A stretch of 21,222 bases of DNA from a virus. How positions within the stretch are numbered: position 1 is the stretch's first letter; the number at the start of each line of letters is the position of its first letter. Shown here piece by piece: positions 2,771-17,411 of this stretch. Position numbers and translations under genes: made by a program. The stretch lies in the IMG/VR virus record IMGVR_UViG_3300046818_000009, positions 1 through 21,222 of that record. One strand, written 5' to 3'. The notes beneath the pieces are model-generated. The model made no database searches, was not told where the DNA came from, and was given only the letters and a program-made list of their open reading frames with translations.

Positions 2771-3715
2771 TCAGACGCGGCGGACCCCCCTCAGTCGGGC
2801 CGCGCCCGGACCGAACACGGCGAGCCCGCAGAAGAACTCGATCCGGGTCCGGTAGGCCGGCTTGGAGTCCAGCTCCCCGAGGTCGCGGACGTCGACGCCG
2901 CCGTTCGTCAGGCCGGTGACGGCACGGTCGCCCTCGTCGGAGCCGAACCGCACGGCGTAGATCGAGGACGTGACGTTGGATTCGCCGAGGACCTCCGTCT
3001 GCGGGATGATCCGCGCTCCCGCAGCGGTTTCGCCGATGTCGATCATCGGGATGCTGTTGTAGAAATCGACGACCCGACCGAACTCGTCGCGGTCCGCCGA
3101 GTGGAAGCCCTCCCGGCGGGCGGCCGAGCGGAGCCAGGCCTTGACGAGATCGTTCATGTACAGGGCGTCCGGCGTCCCGCCCTTGACCAGGGCGAGGAGT
3201 TCGTCGAGCTTGTCGAAGAAGGCGTGACGGTCTTCGGAACCGGCCCCGATCACCGGGAGGCCGTTGGCCCCCGCGTCGAGGACCTGTTTCCCCGTCAGGC
3301 GCTTCTTCAGCCCGTCGAACGAGTTGGCGTCGACGGCGACGTCGCCGTTGATGAAGGCGTCCTGGAACTTGATGGACGCCGCCTTCACCTTCATCCGGTC
3401 CTGCTCGGCCCGCTGGTCGTTCAGGTTGCCCCGGGTCTTGGCGATGAAGGTGTCGACGTCTGCGTCGCCACCGAGGATCACCAGGGCCTCGGTCTTCTGG
3501 TTGAAGGTGCCGGTCGACTCGGAGTAGGCGGCGTTGACGGCGCGGAACTCGACACCGGGCAGGGCCGCCTCCTCGTTGTAGGCGTAGGCGTTGCCCTCGA
3601 TCGGCTTCAGCGGAATCCGGTCGAGGACCACGGACTCCAGGAGAAACGTCTCGACGACGCCTCGCTGGAGGTCGTTTTGAGACAGCTTCGCTGCCTCAGC
3701 AAGGGTGAGAGCCAT
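2771..3715 (-). CDS. Major capsid protein (HK97 fold)
   Basis: This 314-residue protein starts at ATG 3715, with AAGGAG 8 bases upstream. The N-terminus (MALTLAEAAKLSQNDLQRGVVETF) and the motif PLKPIEGNAYAYNEEAALPGV are typical of an actinophage-type HK97-fold major capsid group. That group also shows an E-loop-like region with a conserved FRAVN..Y.ES and a middle block DVDTFIAKT. The C-terminal DSKPAYRTRIEFFCGLAVFGPGAARL is the usual closing strand. It forms the head shell. A scaffold gene lies immediately upstream and the portal before that, which is the classic order portal-scaffold-capsid. There is no N-terminal delta domain, which agrees with a separate scaffold protein. I am confident of the role; the exact subfamily needs a profile search. 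Confidence 0.92.
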   Translation of the reverse strand: MALTLAEAAKLSQNDLQRGVVETFLLESVVLDRIPLKPIEGNAYAYNEEAALPGVEFRAVNAAYSESTGTFNQKTEALVILGGDADVDTFIAKTRGNLNDQRAEQDRMKVKAASIKFQDAFINGDVAVDANSFDGLKKRLTGKQVLDAGANGLPVIGAGSEDRHAFFDKLDELLALVKGGTPDALYMNDLVKAWLRSAARREGFHSADRDEFGRVVDFYNSIPMIDIGETAAGARIIPQTEVLGESNVTSSIYAVRFGSDEGDRAVTGLTNGGVDVRDLGELDSKPAYRTRIEFFCGLAVFGPGAARLRGVRRV

Positions 3716-4518: not shown

Positions 4519-6102
4519 CTATTTCCCGGGTGCCGGTGGGACGTTGCCCCCGGCCTCCGGGTCTTCCTCCGGGTTCCCCGAGGGCGAAGCCCCGAGCCCG
4601 GTGAAGCTGTTGGCAGTCTGAATGTCCTCCCGGATGGCTTTGACCTCGGCGTCAACCTGTTCGTCGTCCCAATCCGGGTGTAGGTCTCTGACTGCGGTCT
4701 CGATCGACTCGACGGGCCCGCCGGTCGCCGTTGCGTGGCGGGCGAACTCCTCGGTCAGATCGCGTGGGAGCGGGTCCTGTAGCTCAACCGCCGGCGCAGC
4801 GCCGGGGTCCGACCAGCTCCGGGCCCAGCCACCCTCTGCAAGCGAGCGCGAGTCGAGAAGCTGAGCGGCCATCAGCATTTGCGGGATCGCGTCGTCCCAT
4901 GAGCGGCCCGAGCCGCGGCTCGCCGACGTCGCCGGCAGGAGGCGCACTCGAAGGGCCGTTCCCGTCTCGGCCGTGCCCTCGCCGGCGGCGGAGCCCTCGC
5001 CGAGGAACTGGACGGTCAGGCCACAACGGGAGGCAACGGTCTTAACGAGCTTGTCCTGCCATTCGATCAGGGCCTTAGCGTCGAAGGTGTACTCGAGGAC
5101 CTTGAAGGGCTCGCCGCTGCCCTCTTTGCCGAGCTGCGCGTCGAGGTCGTCGCCGGCGACCAGGACGTCCTCGCCGGCGTCGAAGAGCGGCTTTTCGATC
5201 GGGATCCGCGAACCGTCGCCGGCGTCGATCGAGTCGGGGAGCTGCGGGTCGCGCTTGGAGAGGGACTTGGCCGGGACGACGATCCGGCGCTTGGCGACCA
5301 GGCGGGCGTTCTCGACGCCGATCGTCATGGCCTCGTTCAGCGCCAGGAGAAGATGCTCATTGCCCTCGAAGACCGACCGGCCAAGGTGACGTTCACGGCC
5401 GCGGCGGAAGATCACGCGGCCGCAGAGGATGCCTGGTAGGCCGTGATCCCAGACGGTCTCGAGCTCCTCGGTCTCCGAGAACTCATCGAGGTCCTTCCCT
5501 TCGCCCAGCGTGTCGCGGGTGCCGAGGTAGAGCCGGTTCTCGATCCGGCCGACAGACTGGATTTCCAGGTGCCGCCAAACCTTGCGCTTTGCAGCGCGCC
5601 GGTTGTCGCGGGGATCCTCGAACTCGCTGACGAAGGCCGCGGCGATCAGGGCCGGGCCCACGTAGAGCGGTATGACGACCTCGCGCGAATGAAACGTCGG
5701 ATACGGGCAGGGCAGGATGCGGGGGTCCCCAGCTTCGATCCGCCACCACACCTCACCCTCGGTCGAGCGGATCTGCTCGGCATAGTGGAGCTCGGAGGGA
5801 AGGTCGGCGGTCTCGATGATCCGCGTGAGGTTGCCCTGGTCGGAGTCGGTGTTGGCACGGAAGCGGGGGTCCTTGCCGAAGAGGAGGTCGGCCTTGGCGG
5901 TGCTGATCCGGTCACCGATCGGGTCGACCACGTAGGGGCGATCGTCGGGCCAGCGGTGAGCGACCTTCAGGGCCGCCTCGTCAGCTTCGCGGAAGGCGGC
6001 GCGCCTGGCGACCTCGGAGATCGCGTTGTGATCGAAGGGCGGCGGCCAGCGTCTCTCCGCCTCGACGCGGGCGATCAGCATGTTCGCCGCGATTTCGGTC
6101 AC
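4519..6102 (-). CDS. Portal protein (SPP1 gp6-like)
   Basis: This 527-residue protein forms the dodecameric ring through which DNA enters the head. Features fitting the SPP1-type portal family include the early VVDPIGDRISTAKADLLFGK, with D/N-rich surroundings and ENxARLVAKRRIVVPA in the stem/wing region. A late LTVQFLGEG block is followed by ALRVRL and an acidic Pro/Gly tail. I chose GTG 6102. It makes a GTGA overlap with the upstream stop, the junction used throughout this window, and it has GGGGAAG five bases upstream. A TTG at 6120 would add six residues and ATG 6081 would remove seven. Its neighbours are large terminase (upstream) and scaffold and capsid (downstream), as expected. Confidence 0.9.
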   Translation of the reverse strand: MTEIAANMLIARVEAERRWPPPFDHNAISEVARRAAFREADEAALKVAHRWPDDRPYVVDPIGDRISTAKADLLFGKDPRFRANTDSDQGNLTRIIETADLPSELHYAEQIRSTEGEVWWRIEAGDPRILPCPYPTFHSREVVIPLYVGPALIAAAFVSEFEDPRDNRRAAKRKVWRHLEIQSVGRIENRLYLGTRDTLGEGKDLDEFSETEELETVWDHGLPGILCGRVIFRRGRERHLGRSVFEGNEHLLLALNEAMTIGVENARLVAKRRIVVPAKSLSKRDPQLPDSIDAGDGSRIPIEKPLFDAGEDVLVAGDDLDAQLGKEGSGEPFKVLEYTFDAKALIEWQDKLVKTVASRCGLTVQFLGEGSAAGEGTAETGTALRVRLLPATSASRGSGRSWDDAIPQMLMAAQLLDSRSLAEGGWARSWSDPGAAPAVELQDPLPRDLTEEFARHATATGGPVESIETAVRDLHPDWDDEQVDAEVKAIREDIQTANSFTGLGASPSGNPEEDPEAGGNVPPAPGK

Positions 6103-6263
6103 GCCGACTTCCCCAGCCAACGAGTGATCGTCGCAGGAGACACCTTCATGGCAGCCGCGATCTGCTGACGCCTATAACCCAGTCTCTCTAGGCCTGCGGC
6201 GAGCGCTACAGCTCGCCGCTTCTCCGCCCCGTGGAGCTTCCTATGTGTCCTCAGTCTCGTCAT
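6099..6263 (-). CDS. Mini helix-turn-helix DNA-binding protein between terminase and portal
   Basis: This is a 54-residue protein. The C-terminal 40 residues form a clear helix-turn-helix: a first helix (EKRRAVALAAGLERLGY), then RRQQIAAAMKVSPATITRWL, where IAAAM-V-SPATITRW is a typical recognition pair. It resembles the DNA-binding part of transposase- and terminase-small-subunit-type proteins. The start is ATG 6263, inside the last 23 bp of the large-terminase frame, with no good ribosome site, so translation probably depends on coupling to terminase. Its stop makes the GTGA junction with portal. A separate small-terminase candidate exists at 16158-16874. This protein could be an extra packaging-site binder or a local regulator; I cannot tell which. 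Confidence 0.6.
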   Translation of the reverse strand: MTRLRTHRKLHGAEKRRAVALAAGLERLGYRRQQIAAAMKVSPATITRWLGKSA

Positions 6264-8001
6264 GCTCGTCGCGGACGGCACGGAAGCGGCGGGCAGTCGT
6301 GGCGACACCGGCGAGCCAGGCATCCGGTCCGTGGTCGTCGCCCTTGTCGACTTTCCCGGAGTCATCGTCGGCGAACTCTAGGCCGCGTAGCTGACGGAGC
6401 AACACAGGGCACCCCGCCGGCGAAATCGCTGCAAGCTGCGTAGTCGGTGGCTTCGGTCCCCACGCCGCCTCGTTCCAGGGCGTCGGCAGGCCTTCGGTGA
6501 GCGCCTCGACCAGCGGCACCTTGGCGGCGTCGCAGGCCTCGACGAAGCGGGCCGAACGGCGGAAGAGCCGGCGGCTGTAGAGGATCGCCTCGTTCTTGTA
6601 CTCGCCGAAGGGGATCGAGACCGATTTCAGTCGCGGCCAGCGCGAGCGCCGCGCGGTCGAGAGAAAAGAGCGCATCGACTGGACGCCGGCGGCGTCGAAG
6701 TGGGCGCTCCCGACTCGGCCGAGTTTCTCGGCCATGCCAAGTAGAGGCTCGACGAGCTGCTCGGGCTCCAGGTGCGCGTGTACGACCTCGGCGACCGAGT
6801 AGAAGCCGCCGCGCTCAAGCGGATGAAGTACGAGGCCGTGCGTCTGCTCGCCCCAGTCGATCGCCGGGATCTCGGCCCGGGTGGGAGGAGCCGCCGGCGG
6901 GATCTCCCCACGTTCGCGTAGCTCGTCCAGGGCGCGCCCAATCCGCTCGGCGGCGTTGATCCCCGCGGGCGGGTAGACCTTGGCGCCAGGACGGCCCTGG
7001 AGGGCTTGCTCGACCGTTTCGGGGTACTCAGCCTCAAACTCCTCATCGGTCAGGTAGTTGTCCTTCTCCTTCTCGCGCCACTCCGGCGATCGCCGCGGGT
7101 CGGTCTTCGAGGGGAGGAAGACGAAGCGGATCGTCTCGGTCGCCATCGCCCGGCTGACGAGCTGGGCGAAGGCCTGGCCGTCGCCTTTAACCTCCTCGGG
7201 CCCGTTGCCGGTCGAGAGAACGATCGCCCGCCCGTCCTCGCCGAGGGTCGGCTGGACCGCAGTCCAGGTCTCGCCGGCCTGGCCGTTCTTTATGAAGCCG
7301 AACTCGTCGAGGATTACGAGGGCGGCCGTCTCCTGGCGGGCCGCGCTCGGGGTGCCGGCGAGGGAGGCGATCTCGCCCCGCCCGAGGACGCCGAAGCGAG
7401 TGTGCGATTGCTTCGTGTCGCGGGCCTCAGCCGGGCTTAGGAAGGGCGGGAGGCATTCCTGGATATTGCGAATTCGCGAGATCAACTTGGTCGCGTCGCC
7501 GCCGTGCTTCGAGAGGGCCAGGATCCGGGCGATCGGGTTCTCGGGGTCGAAGGCGAGAAGGTGGAAGGCGTCGTGCAGGGCGAGCCACGTCATGCCGAGC
7601 TGGCGGGCCTTTAGCCACACCTGGCGAAGCCACTCGCGAATCTCTTCAAGGACTTGACGTTGCTCGGGCCACAGGTCGAACGGGATCCGCCGACCCTTCG
7701 GCGGCTTCAGGTGGCCGTAGGCCTCAGTGAAGTAGACGTGCCCGGGCACCCATAGGCCAGTTACCGGGTGCAGGCCGCCTTCGGCGACCTTGCGGCGCTC
7801 GGCCTCCTCCCATGCCGCGTCGTAAGCGACGTCCTCGGCAAGCGCGAGCCGTTGCTCGAGGGGAAGCCAGCGGACCGCGTTGGGGAGGAACGGCTGAAGC
7901 TCGTCGCCGCCGCACTTGCCGAGCGTCCAGGCGACGAGCTGGCGCTTCTGTGCCTCGCTGAGCTTGCGGACCTCGGCCTCGAGGAGGCCGGTCCCGCTCA
8001 T
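6241..8001 (-). CDS. Terminase large subunit (packaging ATPase and nuclease)
   Basis: This 586-residue protein has both catalytic halves. The ATPase has a Walker A-like KARQLGMTW at 131-139 (the variant common in phage terminases), Walker B LVILDEF at 228-234 with D232/E233, and the coupling motif STGNG at 263-267. The RNase H-like nuclease shows AIDWGE at 380-385 (D382), HFDAAG at 434-439 (D436) and the acidic cluster DDHGPDA at 555-561. It cuts concatemeric DNA and pumps it into the procapsid through the portal. The start ATG 8001 overlaps the upstream stop (ATGA). The portal gene follows after a mini helix-turn-helix gene. All key residues are present, so it should be active. Confidence 0.93.
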   Translation of the reverse strand: MSGTGLLEAEVRKLSEAQKRQLVAWTLGKCGGDELQPFLPNAVRWLPLEQRLALAEDVAYDAAWEEAERRKVAEGGLHPVTGLWVPGHVYFTEAYGHLKPPKGRRIPFDLWPEQRQVLEEIREWLRQVWLKARQLGMTWLALHDAFHLLAFDPENPIARILALSKHGGDATKLISRIRNIQECLPPFLSPAEARDTKQSHTRFGVLGRGEIASLAGTPSAARQETAALVILDEFGFIKNGQAGETWTAVQPTLGEDGRAIVLSTGNGPEEVKGDGQAFAQLVSRAMATETIRFVFLPSKTDPRRSPEWREKEKDNYLTDEEFEAEYPETVEQALQGRPGAKVYPPAGINAAERIGRALDELRERGEIPPAAPPTRAEIPAIDWGEQTHGLVLHPLERGGFYSVAEVVHAHLEPEQLVEPLLGMAEKLGRVGSAHFDAAGVQSMRSFLSTARRSRWPRLKSVSIPFGEYKNEAILYSRRLFRRSARFVEACDAAKVPLVEALTEGLPTPWNEAAWGPKPPTTQLAAISPAGCPVLLRQLRGLEFADDDSGKVDKGDDHGPDAWLAGVATTARRFRAVRDEHDETEDT

Positions 8002-9660: not shown

Positions 9661-9837
9661 TTACCGGCGAACGGCGTCGACGAAGCGGGAGACGACCAAG
9701 GGGCCGAAGCCGCAAATTGCGGCGATTGGTCCGGCGACGATCTGAGGGACCGCGACCTGCGTCAGGAAACCGTAGACGCTGCCGGCGATCGTCAGGCCGG
9801 AGACGACCTCGGCCGGGCGCTTGCGGAGGACCTTCAC
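9661..9837 (-). CDS. Holin candidate (58 residues, two hydrophobic segments)
   Basis: The start is GTG 9837, fixed by a GTGA overlap with the amidase gene; longer reading from 9990 would place most codons inside the amidase frame. The protein has a short basic N-terminus (MKVLRKRP), a hydrophobic segment at about residues 11-29 (VSGLTIAGSVYGFLTQVAV), a turn, and a second segment at about 33-50 (IVAGPIAAICGFGPLVV). The C-terminus ends in FVDAVRR. Size, topology and position right after two lysin genes fit a class II-like holin, which would open the membrane for the lysins. Holins are too variable for certainty. Another small membrane protein is possible. Confidence 0.6.
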   Translation of the reverse strand: MKVLRKRPAEVVSGLTIAGSVYGFLTQVAVPQIVAGPIAAICGFGPLVVSRFVDAVRR

Positions 9838-10454
9838 TTGAGCGGCTCCAGGTCGTAGTGGCGCCGGATCCGGTTGACCTTCCGGCGGGTGCGCTCGAAG
9901 TCCTCGGAGTGGGGTCGGTCCTCCTTCAGCCGGAAATACCTGGCGAGCAACAGGACGTAGCGCATCGGGTAGGAGGGACCCGGGTCCCAATGGCCGCCAC
10001 CGAGGATCCCGAGCTGCTTATGGGAAGCGACGCCGGAGCGGACCAGGAAGCCGGCCGGCGCGATGCCCCGGCGGATCGGGATCCCCCACTCCTTCGACCA
10101 GTAGGCGATCCAGCGGGCGGTGTTGGCGAGCTGGCGCGGATGCTCGCGGTACCACTCCGAGCGCTTCGTCGAGGCGAAGGCGATCTGCTCGATGTTGAGC
10201 GTGAACGGGTTGTCCGAGCTGCACGTCCAGGCCTTCTCGTCGTCGGAGACGAAGCGGGCGTCGTGGCCCTCTGCGTCGTTGGCGACGTGCGAGCTTGCTT
10301 CGGCGTCGGCGCGGTCGAAGAAGTCGGCGAGGCCCTGGAGGTCGCGGATCCCCTTCAGGTTCGATCCCTCGGTTGTGTGGAGGACGATCAGGCCCGGCCG
10401 AACGCCGCCCCGACTGGAGCGGTTGCGGACGATCTTCGTGACCTCGGGCTTCAT
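9834..10454 (-). CDS. N-acetylmuramoyl-L-alanine amidase endolysin (Amidase_2 type)
   Basis: This 206-residue protein begins at ATG 10454 in an ATGA overlap. It shows the Amidase_2 pattern: IVLHTTEG at 23-30 (zinc ligand H26), ASSHVANDAEG at 53-63, NIEQIAFA at 87-94 (the strand that normally reads IE), SHKQLG at 144-149 (H145) and GHWDPGP at 154-160 (H155, D157). These would supply the zinc site that cuts the amide between muramic acid and L-Ala in peptidoglycan. There is no signal peptide, so it needs a holin; a candidate follows immediately. There is no separate wall-binding domain; the C-terminal 45 residues are basic. An M15-type peptidase gene lies directly upstream, forming a two-lysin cassette. 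Confidence 0.88.
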   Translation of the reverse strand: MKPEVTKIVRNRSSRGGVRPGLIVLHTTEGSNLKGIRDLQGLADFFDRADAEASSHVANDAEGHDARFVSDDEKAWTCSSDNPFTLNIEQIAFASTKRSEWYREHPRQLANTARWIAYWSKEWGIPIRRGIAPAGFLVRSGVASHKQLGILGGGHWDPGPSYPMRYVLLLARYFRLKEDRPHSEDFERTRRKVNRIRRHYDLEPLK

Positions 10455-10933
10455 GAGTAGAAGTAGCGGACCCGTTCGGGTCGGGAGTCGACGTGGCGGA
10501 CGGTGCGGTCAGAGGGCGACTGGTAGCCGATCGCGCCGTTGGCAAAGACCTTCTCCGCGGTGGCCGCCTTGATCGGCGTCTGCGGATCGCAGGCCCGAGC
10601 CTCCAAATGCTGCGAGTTCGGAACGCCGCCTTCTGCGGCGTTGTGCGCCGGCGAGCGGTACCAGGAGAGGATTGCGAGCGGGCGATCGCCTTCTAGGTGG
10701 CGGACCCGCTCCATGTGGAGGGCGTGGCGCTGAGCCTTGCGGCGCAAGCGCGACGGGATCGCGATCCCGTCCTTCGAGGCTGCCTCCTTCCGGGTGAAGT
10801 TCGGCGAGAGGAATCCGTGGTCCCAACACTTTTGCTTGAAGGGACGGGCCTTGTCCGGGTCGAGGGGAACCGTCCAGGGCTTCCGCCAGTAGCGGCGCTG
10901 CTGGTCGGTCGTAAGCCATCGGGGGACGTCCAT
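10451..10933 (-). CDS. M15-type peptidase (D-Ala-D-Ala / L-Ala-D-Glu peptidase lysin)
   Basis: This 160-residue protein starts at ATG 10933 without a strong ribosome site. The N-terminal tail ends in SPNFTRKEAASKDG, a phrase typical of M15A proteins. The catalytic part has SWYRSPAHNAAEGG at 90-103, SQHLEARACD at 107-116 (H109, D116) and RHVDSRP at 146-152 (H147), giving the His-Asp-His zinc site. The first three elements and the ending RVRYF match phage peptidoglycan peptidases of actinobacterial viruses. It would cut peptide cross-links while the neighbouring amidase removes the stem peptide. The substrate bond is inferred from the family. It has no signal peptide. Confidence 0.82.
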   Translation of the reverse strand: MDVPRWLTTDQQRRYWRKPWTVPLDPDKARPFKQKCWDHGFLSPNFTRKEAASKDGIAIPSRLRRKAQRHALHMERVRHLEGDRPLAILSWYRSPAHNAAEGGVPNSQHLEARACDPQTPIKAATAEKVFANGAIGYQSPSDRTVRHVDSRPERVRYFYS

Positions 10934-13705: not shown

Positions 13706-13739
13706 CGGTCCTCCTGTGTTCTCGGTTGGGGCGACTCTA
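13706..13739 (-). promoter_or_regulatory. Leader/promoter candidate of the methyltransferase operon (shared leader family)
   Basis: On the minus strand TAGAGT (13739-13734) is followed after 7 bases by ACCGAGAACAC, the element shared with 9304-9313 and 16115-16124, then AGGAGG five bases before ATG 13705. A short 5-bp hairpin (13749-13762) sits upstream, at the stop of the preceding gene. No -35 matches well. Element sharing is seen; a promoter is inferred. Confidence 0.42.
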
Positions 13740-13754
13740 CGGCGTCCTGCGGCG

Positions 13755-13964
13755 TCAGCCGCCGGGGAGGCCGGGCCCGGGCGGGCAGCCGTGCTTTCGC
13801 CAGGCCTTCATGTGGGCCCGGTACTCGGGCCGGTCCTCCAGCGGCGCCGGGTCCTTCATGGGGAAGGGATCGGACGGCGGCGGCGCGTTCGGTTCGCCGC
13901 CGCCCTCGATCAGCCGAAGACGACGGCGCTCCGCTCGCGCCCGCGTTCGCTTCCCCTTAGACAA
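13755..13964 (-). CDS. Small basic phage protein
   Basis: This 69-residue protein starts at TTG 13964, with GCAGG one base away and a partial overlap (8 bp) with the end of the secreted-protein gene. The N-terminal third is strongly basic (MSKGKRTRARAERRRLRL). Then come a Pro-rich linker (PNAPPPSDPFPM) and the ending RPEYRAHMKAWRKHGCPPG. It may bind nucleic acid or a virion part. No family is recognised. It follows the secreted decapeptide-repeat gene, so it may be expressed with it. The TTG start and short size keep confidence moderate. Confidence 0.5.
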   Translation of the reverse strand: MSKGKRTRARAERRRLRLIEGGGEPNAPPPSDPFPMKDPAPLEDRPEYRAHMKAWRKHGCPPGPGLPGG

Positions 13965-14625
13965 CCTGCTCGGCGGTAATGAACGTCTGCGTGATCTGGG
14001 CCGATTCGGGACCGACCGTGCAGGTCGAACCTGCGCCGCCGACCGACCGGGCGTAGATCGCGATTTCGTGAGGCCCGACCGCCAGGCCGAAGAAGTCGAC
14101 GACGACCATGACGTTGCCGTTGACGGAACCGTTGCCGACGTAGATCACACCGGCTCCGGGTGCCGCGGCCTGGCCGTCGACGCGGAGCTGGAACTGGCAC
14201 GGCAGGAAGCCGGCGGACGCCGAGCCGGTCCAGGAGACCTCCAGGATCGACGTCGGGTCTTCCTTGACGTAGGTTTCGATCGGATCGAGCGGGACGAATT
14301 CGTCGCTGACTTCGGCGCTCGCGGCGCCTGCCTCGAGGCCGAGCTGCGGGTCCGGCGCTTCGACGTCGGATGGCTGAACCTGATTGGTCCCTATGTCCTG
14401 CGACTGGACGCCTTCGGTTGCGAGGTCGGCGCTGGCGACGGTGCCGTTCTGGACGTCGCTCGTCCGAACCGACCCCTTCCGGTAGTCCTGTGTCGTCAGG
14501 CTGCCGTTGCGGATCTGCTTCCCGGTGATGAGCACCTGGCCGGCGACCGCGCCGGCGATGCCGCTCACGGCGGCTACGAGGGCAAGCGTGGCGATCGCCA
14601 GCGCGGCCCGGATCTGGAGCTTCAT
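13957..14625 (-). CDS. Secreted protein with ten-residue NGT/NGS repeats (actinobacterial-type)
   Basis: This 222-residue protein starts at ATG 14625, with GAGGAGG five bases upstream. Residues 1-29 are a Sec-type signal peptide (MKLQIRAALAIATLALVAAV, then SGIAGAVAG), with no lipobox. Residues 38-88 hold five tandem units of ten residues, for example KGSVRTSDV and NGTVASADL, with Asp then a hydrophobic residue at each repeat end. Such repeats are very common in secreted proteins of Solirubrobacterales-type actinobacteria, where a beta-helix is likely. The rest is beta-rich, with a probable disulfide pair (LPCQFQLRV, GSTCTVG). It has its own palindromic promoter region upstream. It may have come from the host. 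The role (surface modification, exclusion or adhesion) is inferred. Confidence 0.72.
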   Translation of the reverse strand: MKLQIRAALAIATLALVAAVSGIAGAVAGQVLITGKQIRNGSLTTQDYRKGSVRTSDVQNGTVASADLATEGVQSQDIGTNQVQPSDVEAPDPQLGLEAGAASAEVSDEFVPLDPIETYVKEDPTSILEVSWTGSASAGFLPCQFQLRVDGQAAAPGAGVIYVGNGSVNGNVMVVVDFFGLAVGPHEIAIYARSVGGAGSTCTVGPESAQITQTFITAEQVV

Positions 14626-14674
14626 GGATTCCTCCTCGGGGTTGGACTGTCTATATTGTAGACAGTCATGTCAA
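14626..14674 (-). promoter_or_regulatory. Promoter/operator region with 23-bp inverted repeat
   Basis: GACTGTCTA (14645-14653) and TAGACAGTC (14659-14667) form a perfect 9-bp inverted repeat with a 5-base spacer. On the minus strand it overlaps TATAGA (14655-14650), 7 bases before the ACC start of the leader, and lies beside TTGACA (14674-14669), though the spacing of 13 is short for a standard sigma70 promoter. A regulator binding here would block transcription of the secreted-protein gene. Confidence 0.5.
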
Positions 14675-14913: not shown

Positions 14914-15251
14914 GCCGCGATCTGGTCGCCGGTAATTTGCCAGGATTTCTCACGGCTCAGCCCGGCGATCACGTCGTCCCTAAACACCTGGTAGCGCCGA
15001 GACACGGCCACCAGGCGATCGGCTTCATCCTCGCCGCCGGCGGCCTCTCCGCCGAAGTAGTCGATCAGGATGCAGCGGGCCAGGTCGGACGGGCCCGATC
15101 CGCTATATCCGACCTCGAAGCCGTCCGGCGAATGCAGGACGTAGTGTTTCAGCGCCTCCTCGGTCTCGCCGGTGCGGACGGTAACCGCCAGGCCGCCACC
15201 GGCAGCAGCGGCGAGACGCTCGCCGATATAGAGCTTTCGCCGGCCGCTCAC
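14889..15251 (-). CDS. DUF6166-like phage protein
   Basis: This 120-residue protein starts at GTG 15251 (GTGA overlap). Residues 40-70 read YVLHSPDGFEVGYSGSGPSD, then LARCILIDYFG, the typical DUF6166 pattern (Y-HSP-GFEWGY-GSGPADLA--IL-DY). The function is not known. The C-terminus (REKSWQITGDQIAAWLRSVE) matches the ending often found in that family, with the W and I spacing. The N-terminus (MSGRRKLYIGERLAAAAGG) is basic. It sits between a coiled-coil protein and a zinc-finger gene in an accessory block. Confidence 0.75.
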   Translation of the reverse strand: MSGRRKLYIGERLAAAAGGGLAVTVRTGETEEALKHYVLHSPDGFEVGYSGSGPSDLARCILIDYFGGEAAGGEDEADRLVAVSRRYQVFRDDVIAGLSREKSWQITGDQIAAWLRSVES

Positions 15252-16096
15252 CGCTCGCCCTCTTCCTCGGCCCGCGGCTGGACCAGCGGCGACGTCGACC
15301 AGCGCTCCAGTTCGCCGAGGGCCCGGGCCGCTCGGACCCACCAGGCCGGTGTATCGCCGGCGAGAAGCTCGACGAGCGTCTGGACGTTGGGGACCAGCTC
15401 GTCGCGGACCAGGGCTTCGAGTTCGTCGCGACGCTCCTCAGCGGCGGCGAGCGCATCGCGGAGCTTCTGGACCTCGATCGACTCCGGCTGTAGCGCTTCC
15501 TCGGCGGCCTCGGCGAGTGGCCGGGCCTCGTCGGCTATGCCGTTGTGCGGAACCCTAACGACCATCATCTGCCCGCCAGCGTCGCAGAAGATCACCGGGA
15601 GCGGATCCGGGATCTCCCTTGGAAGGCGCCGGGCAACGGCGAGCCATGTTCGGCCGAACTGGATCGCCGCAGTCCGCGTCATGTAGCCGGTCGGGCGGAG
15701 GTCCAACGCCTCCCCCCTGAAGGAACCGACCGCCAGCTCCTCCACCTTCGGGACTCTGCCGACCTCGATCACCCCGTCCTCTCCACCGGGCGGCGCCGGC
15801 GGGACCGCGATCTTCGACGCTCGGCGGAGCGTCTTCTCGATCTCGTCCTGAGCTTGCCCACTCCAGCCCGGAACGCCGCCGGCGATGATCTCCGAGACGC
15901 GGCGCAACGTCTCCTCGGCCCGGTCGCATCGGCGGGTGATCGTCTCGACCTGGCCCTCAGCGAATTCAGCGCCGATCTTGGCGCGCTGCCGCTCGACCTC
16001 CAGGGCCTCCTCGGCTTTGTCGGCGCGGGCGGCCTCCGTGTCGGCGCGCTGCTGCGCCTTATTGCGTTCGTCGATGAGCTTGTCTGCTCCTGCCAT
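15248..16096 (-). CDS. Coiled-coil phage protein, 282 residues
   Basis: The start is ATG 16096, with GAGGAGG four bases upstream in the shared leader; a longer frame upstream to 16345 lies mostly inside the TerS gene. An N-terminal coiled coil spans about residues 5-70 (KLIDERNKAQQRADTEAARA, ADKAEEALEVERQRA). A globular middle (RTWLAVARRLPREIPDPLPV, FCDAGGQMMVVRVP) follows, then a second helical part (SIEVQKLRDALAAAEERRDE) and an acidic tail. It resembles generic phage structural or accessory proteins; no named family is recognised. It comes directly after the putative small terminase. A structural or packaging-associated role is only a guess. Confidence 0.65.
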   Translation of the reverse strand: MAGADKLIDERNKAQQRADTEAARADKAEEALEVERQRAKIGAEFAEGQVETITRRCDRAEETLRRVSEIIAGGVPGWSGQAQDEIEKTLRRASKIAVPPAPPGGEDGVIEVGRVPKVEELAVGSFRGEALDLRPTGYMTRTAAIQFGRTWLAVARRLPREIPDPLPVIFCDAGGQMMVVRVPHNGIADEARPLAEAAEEALQPESIEVQKLRDALAAAEERRDELEALVRDELVPNVQTLVELLAGDTPAWWVRAARALGELERWSTSPLVQPRAEEEGER

Positions 16097-16143
16097 CGTG
16101 CCTCCTCGGTGATCGTGTTCTCGGTGTCCACAGTATAGACACC
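16097..16143 (-). promoter_or_regulatory. Leader/promoter candidate with TAGAC palindrome (shared leader family)
   Basis: The minus strand carries TATACT (16137-16132), then six bases, then ACCGAGAACAC and GAGGAGG before ATG 16096. Plus-strand 16101-16124 is almost identical to 9291-9313. GGTGTC (16123-16128) and GACACC (16138-16143) form an inverted repeat around the -10; the TGTC...TAGACA core agrees with 14645-14667. This supports a regulated promoter. Confidence 0.45.
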
Positions 16144-16955: not shown

Positions 16956-17411
16956 TCAGGATCCAGGGGGAAGGAGGGCGAGACCCGAGCCGGTGAGCTG
17001 CTCGAGGTCGCCGGCGAGGCGCTGGCCGACCGTCTGCCCGTCCGGGAGCATGAAGTGGGCGAGAAACTCGTCCTCGAAGCTGACGATCCCCGACTCCACG
17101 ACCTCGAGCTTGGCCTTGATCGCGAGGGCGAGCGCGCGCCAGCGCTGGCGGATCGCCTGGTCGTAGGCCTGCTCGATCGAGCCCGGACTACGGGCCTGGC
17201 CGGTCGGCGTGTAGGCGATCTCGTCGGCCTGGCGGTCGGGCATCGGCAGGAGGAAGCGGACGGTCTTCCCGTGGGCGCGGAAGGCGACGACGGCGGTCTC
17301 GCCCTCCCAGCCGTACATGAAGCCATCGCAGCCGTAGCGCGCGAGCGTCTTCTCGATCTCGGCCCTCGAGCGCTCGGCCGGGACCTTCGTTTCTGCGGCA
17401 TAGCGGCTCAT
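16956..17411 (-). CDS. Conserved phage protein of unknown function
   Basis: This 151-residue protein starts at ATG 17411, with GGAGG eight bases upstream. It begins MSRYAAETKVPAERSRAEIE, then KTLARYGCDGFMYGWEG, and contains RFLLPMPDR, then RRWRALALAIKAKLEVVESG and FEDEFLAHFMLPDGQTVGQ. I recognise this as a widespread phage hypothetical protein of about 150 residues, with no agreed activity. An in-frame ATG at 17540 makes an ATGA overlap with the upstream stop and would add 43 basic residues, so the longer form is possible. The strong ribosome site and the family's usual N-terminus favour 17411; the 125 bp between holds nothing else that I can see. Confidence 0.7.
   Translation of the reverse strand: MSRYAAETKVPAERSRAEIEKTLARYGCDGFMYGWEGETAVVAFRAHGKTVRFLLPMPDRQADEIAYTPTGQARSPGSIEQAYDQAIRQRWRALALAIKAKLEVVESGIVSFEDEFLAHFMLPDGQTVGQRLAGDLEQLTGSGLALLPPGS

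What the first reader, a model, noticed from the sequence alone, without database searches (positions are those of the whole stretch)
13957..14625. Phage-encoded secreted decapeptide-repeat protein of host type
A signal peptide and five ten-residue units (pattern NG-T/S-V/L-xxx-D-V/L/I) resemble secreted proteins abundant in Solirubrobacterales-type actinobacteria. It has its own promoter/operator region inside an otherwise coupled gene array. This is the layout of a moron: a cargo gene expressed independently, possibly altering the host surface or blocking other phages.
Basis: partly seen in the sequence, partly recalled or inferred. Interest (0 to 1): 0.6.

Follow-up and report, generated by a model that had tools for sequence, protein, structure and literature searches.

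The report
Phage-carried secreted host-type surface fibre
This phage carries a gene, borrowed in style from its actinobacterial hosts, for a secreted protein with a ten-residue-repeat stalk and a globular head of the kind used by sugar-binding proteins; the same gene is scattered as movable cargo through at least a dozen other phages, where it probably changes the surface of the infected cell.

Summary
The gene is real, on the minus strand (14625..13957, 222 aa). It has a signal peptide, 5-6 decapeptide units (16 of 51 identities at lag 10; 0 of 100,000 shuffles) and a C-terminal domain. The signal-peptide-plus-repeat module matches secreted chromosomal proteins of Actinomycetota (82 of 198 genomes of the Nocardioides family). 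The C-terminal domain is predicted to be a TNF/C1q-like head, nearest to bacterial TNF-like lectins and fibre tips (Z up to 10.5), not a beta-helix. I found 12 further full-length relatives, 37-64% identical, all in viral contigs. Their stalks differ by exactly 10, 20 or 30 residues. In seven relatives the gene lies antisense to neighbouring tail or lysis genes; two of those phages encode an integrase. The window's closest relative (terminase 76%) is syntenic but lacks the gene. So moron-like cargo is well supported. Its promoter carries a palindromic operator that recurs elsewhere in the same phages, so expression belongs to a phage regulon rather than being independent, and no integrase was found in the window's own lineage. 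Function is inferred: a surface-displayed adhesin-like fibre, most likely for receptor masking or superinfection exclusion. The full-length family is unnamed in Pfam, NCBIfam and PHROGs.

The parts
13957..14625 (-). whole gene (222 aa + stop), secreted decapeptide-stalk / TNF-C1q-like-head protein
   Evidence: 12 full-length viral homologues
14542..14625 (-). signal peptide, residues 1-28, AxA cleavage site
   Evidence: sequence; alignment with phage and host relatives
14356..14538 (-). decapeptide-repeat stalk, residues 30-90, 5-6 units
   Evidence: periodicity test; indels of 10/20/30 residues
14305..14355 (-). proline/glycine-rich linker, residues 91-107
   Evidence: alignment (P91 and P93 invariant)
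13960..14304 (-). TNF/C1q-like beta-sandwich head, residues 108-222, invariant Cys143 and Cys202
   Evidence: AF2 models and fold searches; invariants
14631..14636 (-). ribosome-binding site AGGAGG
   Evidence: sequence
14645..14667 (.). palindromic operator GACTGTCTA-TATTG-TAGACAGTC
   Evidence: same operator perfect twice in relative G001
14655..14660 (-). candidate -10 element TACAAT inside the operator
   Evidence: aligned with TATACT of site 16125-16141 and TAGTCT of G001; no good -35 found here
16125..16141 (.). second copy of the operator (1 mismatch), upstream of gene 15248-16096; orthologous in position to G001:30345

Best explanation
The gene is a horizontally moving accessory (moron-like) gene of tailed phages, probably of actinobacterial hosts. 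It encodes a Sec-exported protein built like host surface proteins: a signal peptide or anchor, a decapeptide-repeat stalk of adjustable length, and a TNF/C1q-like head with a probable disulfide. It is transcribed from its own phage-controlled promoter, exported, and displayed on or shed from the infected (in some relatives, lysogenic) cell, probably as a trimer. Most likely mechanism (inferred, about 35% for this specific step): the head binds a surface glycan or receptor of the host, masking it and excluding further phages or stopping progeny from sticking to the producing cell. Shown here: architecture, homology, patchy distribution, insertion layout, and recurrence of the operator. Inferred: trimerisation, surface display, ligand, biological effect.
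For: Signal peptide and repeats. Homology of this half to chromosomal secreted proteins: 32 of 396 Actinomycetota, 82 of 198 of the Nocardioides family, often several per genome, and 30 of 396 with the 8-member viral profile. 12 full-length viral homologues, 37-64% identical, with C143 and C202 invariant and 10/20/30-residue indels. Antisense insertion next to tail or lysis genes in L171, L172, L173, L174, L175, L180, L188; integrase in the records of L172 and L174. G001, with TerL 76% and MCP 84%, is syntenic but lacks it. Compared with distant G003 the gene is better conserved (63%, dS 0.93) than TerL (46%, dS 1.10), portal (39%, dS 1.42) or amidase (49%, dS 1.38), with dN/dS about 0.34. Fold: Bd2734 TNF-like tip Z 10.5, BC2L-C lectin 9.8, Pgp3 9.7, PLTL lectin 9.5, BclA 7.8, C1QL2 7.3; similar top hits from the model made with phage sequences only. 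Such TNF-like heads are glycan-binding lectins or fibre tips in characterised cases (PMC10769870, PMC12914763).
Against: Head model confidence is moderate (pLDDT 60-84); the best Foldseek E is only 1e-3; the stalk is not modelled with confidence (pLDDT 30-48), and no trimer was computed. No functional data. No integrase in the window, G001 or G003, so a lysogenic role for this particular phage is unproven. No terminator-like site flanks the gene. TNF/C1q-like heads also occur in phage tail proteins.
Confidence: 0.6

Rival explanations
1. It is a virion protein: a small tail or head fibre with a TNF/C1q-like receptor-binding tip, made in the cytoplasm; the hydrophobic N-terminus is an assembly anchor.
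For: TNF/C1q-like folds occur in predicted phage tail proteins; the stalk half has a weak match to tail-fibre family phrog_892 (E 0.014 for the window protein, 1.4e-4 for L171); the gene is next to tail genes in several relatives.
Against: Signal peptide with AxA site homologous to host secretory proteins; in the window and G003 it lies among non-structural genes under an operator that in G003 is nearly confined to the non-structural half; it is antisense to the tail genes in L171, L173, L175 and L188; absent from the otherwise syntenic G001; phrog_892 matches only the low-complexity repeat.
Confidence: 0.12
2. It is an adhesin-like lysogenic-conversion or infection-time cargo whose head binds particles, other cells or a eukaryote rather than a phage receptor, changing attachment or aggregation of the carrier cell.
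For: Nearest structural relatives are adhesive lectins and spore or predator fibre tips (PMC10769870, PMC12914763); host homologues with similar stalks carry many different heads and collagen-like segments, as expected of surface fibres.
Against: One head type is conserved across diverse phages (mean identity 50%), which fits one shared phage-relevant target better than varied niches; no ligand known.
Confidence: 0.25
3. It is a lysis- or envelope-associated protein that helps disrupt the actinobacterial cell wall late in infection.
For: Neighbours include amidase and holin-like genes in L170 and lysis genes in L172, L174, L180; the signal peptide sends it to the envelope.
Against: The window already has an amidase, a peptidase and a holin-like gene; the head has no enzyme match; antisense orientation to the lysis genes in L172, L174, L180.
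Confidence: 0.08
4. It is an ordinary host gene piece recently picked up and not yet of any use to the phage.
For: The host-type module is abundant in actinobacterial genomes.
Against: 13 full-length relatives in viruses, none full-length found in 396 sampled Actinomycetota genomes; purifying selection, dN/dS about 0.34; own operator-promoter.
Confidence: 0.04

Closest known systems
Ltp-type superinfection-exclusion lipoproteins of temperate Streptococcus phages (TP-J34; PMC3952083)
   Same: Phage-encoded, exported to the cell surface, modular anchor-spacer-repeat design, argued by its authors to be a moron.
   Different: No sequence similarity claimed; Ltp is a lipoprotein without a TNF-like head; exclusion activity is shown for Ltp and untested here.
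Mosaic adhesive trimer (MAT) fibres of Bdellovibrio with TNF-like tips, e.g. Bd2734 and Bd2439 (PMC10769870)
   Same: Signal peptide, fibre stalk, C-terminal TNF-like tip; best structural match of the head (Z 10.5).
   Different: MAT proteins are about 850-1100 aa with an N-terminal ~130-aa domain and beta-prism/beta-helix stalks; here the protein is 222 aa with a short decapeptide stalk; no sequence homology (12% identity).
TNF-like lectins BC2L-C N-domain and PLTL (PMC12914763)
   Same: Predicted same fold of the head (Z 9.8 and 9.5).
   Different: Those are soluble lectins with known sugars; no stalk of this kind; glycan-binding residues were not shown to be shared.
Chromosomal decapeptide-repeat secreted proteins of Actinomycetota (e.g. 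Nocardioides L085/L090, L086, L139, L153; Pfam PF25296 Decapeptide nearest)
   Same: Signal peptide, LITGKQIKNGS-type start of the stalk, decapeptide repeats, C-terminal beta domain with VDG...AGxH motifs.
   Different: Host heads differ in sequence (hhalign probability 43% for the most similar group); the viral head is a conserved type not found in sampled bacterial genomes.

Membership tests
Moron (phage accessory cargo gene) | present or absent between otherwise syntenic relatives | tested here: met
   G001 is syntenic through the window (TerL 76%, MCP 84%) without the gene; 1 of 80 MCP-related records has it
Moron (phage accessory cargo gene) | independent transcription unit (own promoter) | tested here: inconclusive
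   operator-promoter signals upstream and conserved in a relative, antisense orientation in seven relatives; transcription not measured, no strong -35 at this site
Moron (phage accessory cargo gene) | own terminator | tested here: inconclusive
   no terminator-like site next to the gene in a simple scan; actinobacterial terminators are poorly covered by such scans
Moron (phage accessory cargo gene) | expressed in the prophage state / benefits host | not testable with these tools
   no expression data; integrase present in the records of L172 and L174 but not in window, G001, G003
TNF/C1q-like fold (head) | jelly-roll beta-sandwich of this type | tested here: met
   predicted strands and Z 10.5 to 7 against Bd2734, BC2L-C, Pgp3, PLTL, BclA, C1QL2; moderate confidence model
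TNF/C1q-like fold (head) | homotrimer | not testable with these tools
   only monomer prediction offered
Pfam PF25296 Decapeptide repeat region | score above the curated cut-off | tested here: not met
   P0002 has no Pfam match at E<=1; only host protein L086 hits, below cut-off
Pentapeptide repeat proteins (PF00805) | A(D/N)LXX repeats scoring above cut-off | tested here: not met
   no Pfam match for P0002; only a mixed phage/host profile resembles pentapeptide structures
Superinfection-exclusion proteins | blocks infection by other phages when expressed | not testable with these tools
   no experiment; no PADLOC match
Virion tail fibre | encoded in the co-oriented structural operon, no signal peptide | tested here: not met
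   signal peptide; non-structural position or antisense to tail genes

The most novel reading that the evidence does not exclude
A virus-specific family of host-mimicking surface fibres: phages took a host stalk module, fitted it with one conserved TNF-like, possibly lectin-like head, and pass it between unrelated temperate and virulent actinophages as a regulated cell-surface 'coat' that controls access of other phages.
Probability: 0.3. Interest if true: 0.75.

Novelty: new variant of a known kind. Interest (0 to 1): 0.55.

Why it matters
Surface-altering morons are known from Proteobacteria and Firmicutes. A conserved, mobile family with a host-type stalk and a TNF-like head in phages of probable actinobacterial hosts would give a concrete, testable receptor-masking factor. 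It would also give a handle on the very abundant but uncharacterised decapeptide-repeat secreted proteins of Actinomycetota.

Tried and rejected
Direct protein search of named phages and single-sequence scans of viral and genome contigs found nothing; only the path through MCP relatives and profiles worked. Pfam, NCBIfam, PHROGs and PADLOC gave no family for P0002 (phrog_892 tail fibre at E 0.014 covers the repeat only). Beta-helix: the stalk is not modelled as one; a profile with host proteins resembles pentapeptide-repeat structures, so a beta-helical stalk is not excluded. Using the C-terminal domain alone against 396 Actinomycetota found no clear homologue. A DNA pattern for two repeat units found no viral contig. 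Literature search for decapeptide-repeat proteins of these bacteria gave nothing relevant.

Full report
The window is a 21.2-kb virus record with terminase large subunit (6241-8001), portal (4519-6120), major capsid protein (2771-3715), minor head protein (1-639) and lysis genes (amidase 9834-10454, peptidase-like 10451-10933, a possible holin 9661-9837), nearly all on the minus strand. By capsid protein its nearest named phages are Streptomyces phage Rowa (70%) and Gordonia phages (about 62%), so an actinobacterial host is likely but not proven.

The finding's ORF exists at 13957-14625 on the minus strand: 222 aa, ATG, with AGGAGG upstream. It has a signal peptide with an AxA site, then six in-register ten-residue blocks (residues 30-89), a linker and a beta-rich domain. 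Identity at lag 10 is 16 of 51, and every fifth residue is hydrophobic; neither was reached in 100,000 shuffles.

Relatives. Single-sequence searches found nothing. A 70-kb viral record (G003), reached through its capsid protein, has a homologue 63-64% identical. A profile of the N-terminal module and then of eight full-length members raised the count to 12 viral contigs besides the window. All are full-length: signal peptide, stalk and the same head. Stalk lengths differ by exactly 10 (L189), 20 (L175, L188) or 30 (L172) residues, and 29 positions are invariant, including Cys143, Cys202, Trp132 and the C-x-FQ-x-RV-x-G segment.

Host-type module. In Actinomycetota the signal-peptide-plus-stalk half matches chromosomal proteins in 32 of 396 evenly drawn genomes and in 82 of 198 of the family of Nocardioides, e.g. 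KLITGKQIKNGTITTLDVKNGSV in N. szechwanensis against VLITGKQIRNGSLTTQDYRKGSV here. Those proteins continue into varied C-terminal domains, often after collagen-like GPxGPx stretches. A small group (L139, L153, L086, L165-L167) has a head that aligns weakly with the viral one (HMM i-Evalue 2.7e-4 for L139; hhalign probability 43%). No sampled bacterial genome gave a full-length viral-type match.

Fold. AlphaFold2 with two phage sequences gave a low-confidence model (mean pLDDT 46), yet its C-terminal part already matched TNF/C1q-like heads (Pgp3 Z 8.2, PLTL 7.1, Bd2734 6.6). With nine sequences the head rose to pLDDT 60-84. The ranking became Bd2734 TNF-like tip 10.5, BC2L-C lectin domain 9.8, Pgp3 9.7, PLTL lectin 9.5, F-BclA 8.6, BclA 7.8, C1QL2 7.3; the best Foldseek hit was BC2L-C, E 1e-3. 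These are mostly trimeric, and several bind glycans (PMC10769870, PMC12914763); ligand binding here is inference. The stalk is not confidently modelled.

Cargo layout. G001, the closest relative (MCP 84%, TerL 76%, TerS 66%), is syntenic across the window but has no homologue; the TerS-to-lysis segment is variable. Among 80 capsid-related records only G003 has it. Between window and G003 the gene (63%, dS 0.93) is more conserved than TerL (46%, dS 1.10), portal (39%, dS 1.42), amidase (49%, dS 1.38) and TerS (36%, dS 1.23); only the capsid protein is closer (73%, dS 0.81). dN/dS is about 0.34. This suggests exchange or unusual constraint. In L171, L173, L175 and L188 the gene runs antisense between tail genes. 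In L172, L174 and L180 it runs tail-to-tail against lysis genes, beyond a repressor-like and an ArsR-like regulator. The records holding L172 and L174 encode a tyrosine integrase. No tyrosine or serine integrase was found in the window, G001 or G003.

Control. The 51-nt upstream gap holds a perfect palindrome, TGTCTA-N5-TAGACA (14648-14664), with a -10-like TACAAT inside. A second copy (1 mismatch) lies at 16125-16141 with TATACT inside. G001 has two perfect copies, each with TTGAC[A/G]-N18-TAGTCT: one at the orthologous place after TerS, the other before a small antisense membrane-protein gene. In G003 a different palindrome, TGTACC-NN-GGTACA, sits 26 nt upstream of the homologue and recurs (7 sites in 20 kb, 0.09 expected), almost only in the non-structural half.

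Reading. The best-supported account is a mobile accessory gene for an exported, host-styled surface fibre with a TNF/C1q-like head. It works like surface-acting cargo such as the Ltp superinfection-exclusion proteins, which are exported, modular and argued to be morons (PMC3952083), but it is not a member of that family. Receptor masking is the mechanism I consider most likely, with adhesion as the main rival; neither is shown. A virion role is disfavoured by the signal peptide, the antisense and non-structural positions, and the absence from G001.

Noticed in passing
L083 (G003) 6568, 9940, 14902, 19747, 19888, 20344, 20545; 12 sites over the 70-kb record: Dispersed palindrome TGTACC-NN-GGTACA, strongly over-represented and tied to TANNNT promoters, nearly confined to the non-structural half: a stoperator-like or regulator network of an uncharacterised phage.
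   Followed up: partly
G001 (L130) 13725-13990: A 73-aa two-TM membrane protein gene antisense among structural genes, with the same TGTCTA-N5-TAGACA operator and a TTGACA-N18-TAGTCT promoter: looks like another moron.
   Followed up: partly
L171:2780, L173:6993, L175:7849, L188:4025: A GC-rich hairpin (GCCCC[CG]G...[CG]GGGGC) occurs once per locus, about 25-35 nt before the start of the homologous gene, after a CGCTAnnnT element: possible leader or insulating terminator specific to this gene.
   Followed up: partly
L173 6564-6962, L175 7580-7813, L172 7664-7954, L174 7528-7935, L180 7594-8004: A small lipoprotein, secreted or membrane gene precedes the fibre gene on the same strand in several phages; possible two-gene cargo unit.
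   Followed up: partly
L181 7582-7974; L172 6746-7327; L174 6650-7237; L180 6651-7253: ArsR-like winged-helix regulators (HTH_20 in L181 and, weakly, L172) next to the gene in four phages, in L181 overlapping it by 4 nt: candidate dedicated regulator.
   Followed up: no
L187 3583-6126: Four genes that read as a 7-deazaguanine (QueC/FolE/QueE/QueD-like) set in another carrier phage; judged by eye only.
   Followed up: no
window 16956-17411: Protein 50-57% identical to an unannotated gene of Mycobacterium phages MooMoo, ThetaBob, Yoshi and Sparky (phrog_17260); function unknown.
   Followed up: no
window 9661-10933: Two adjacent lysins (amidase and peptidase-like) followed by a holin-like 58-aa protein.
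   Followed up: no
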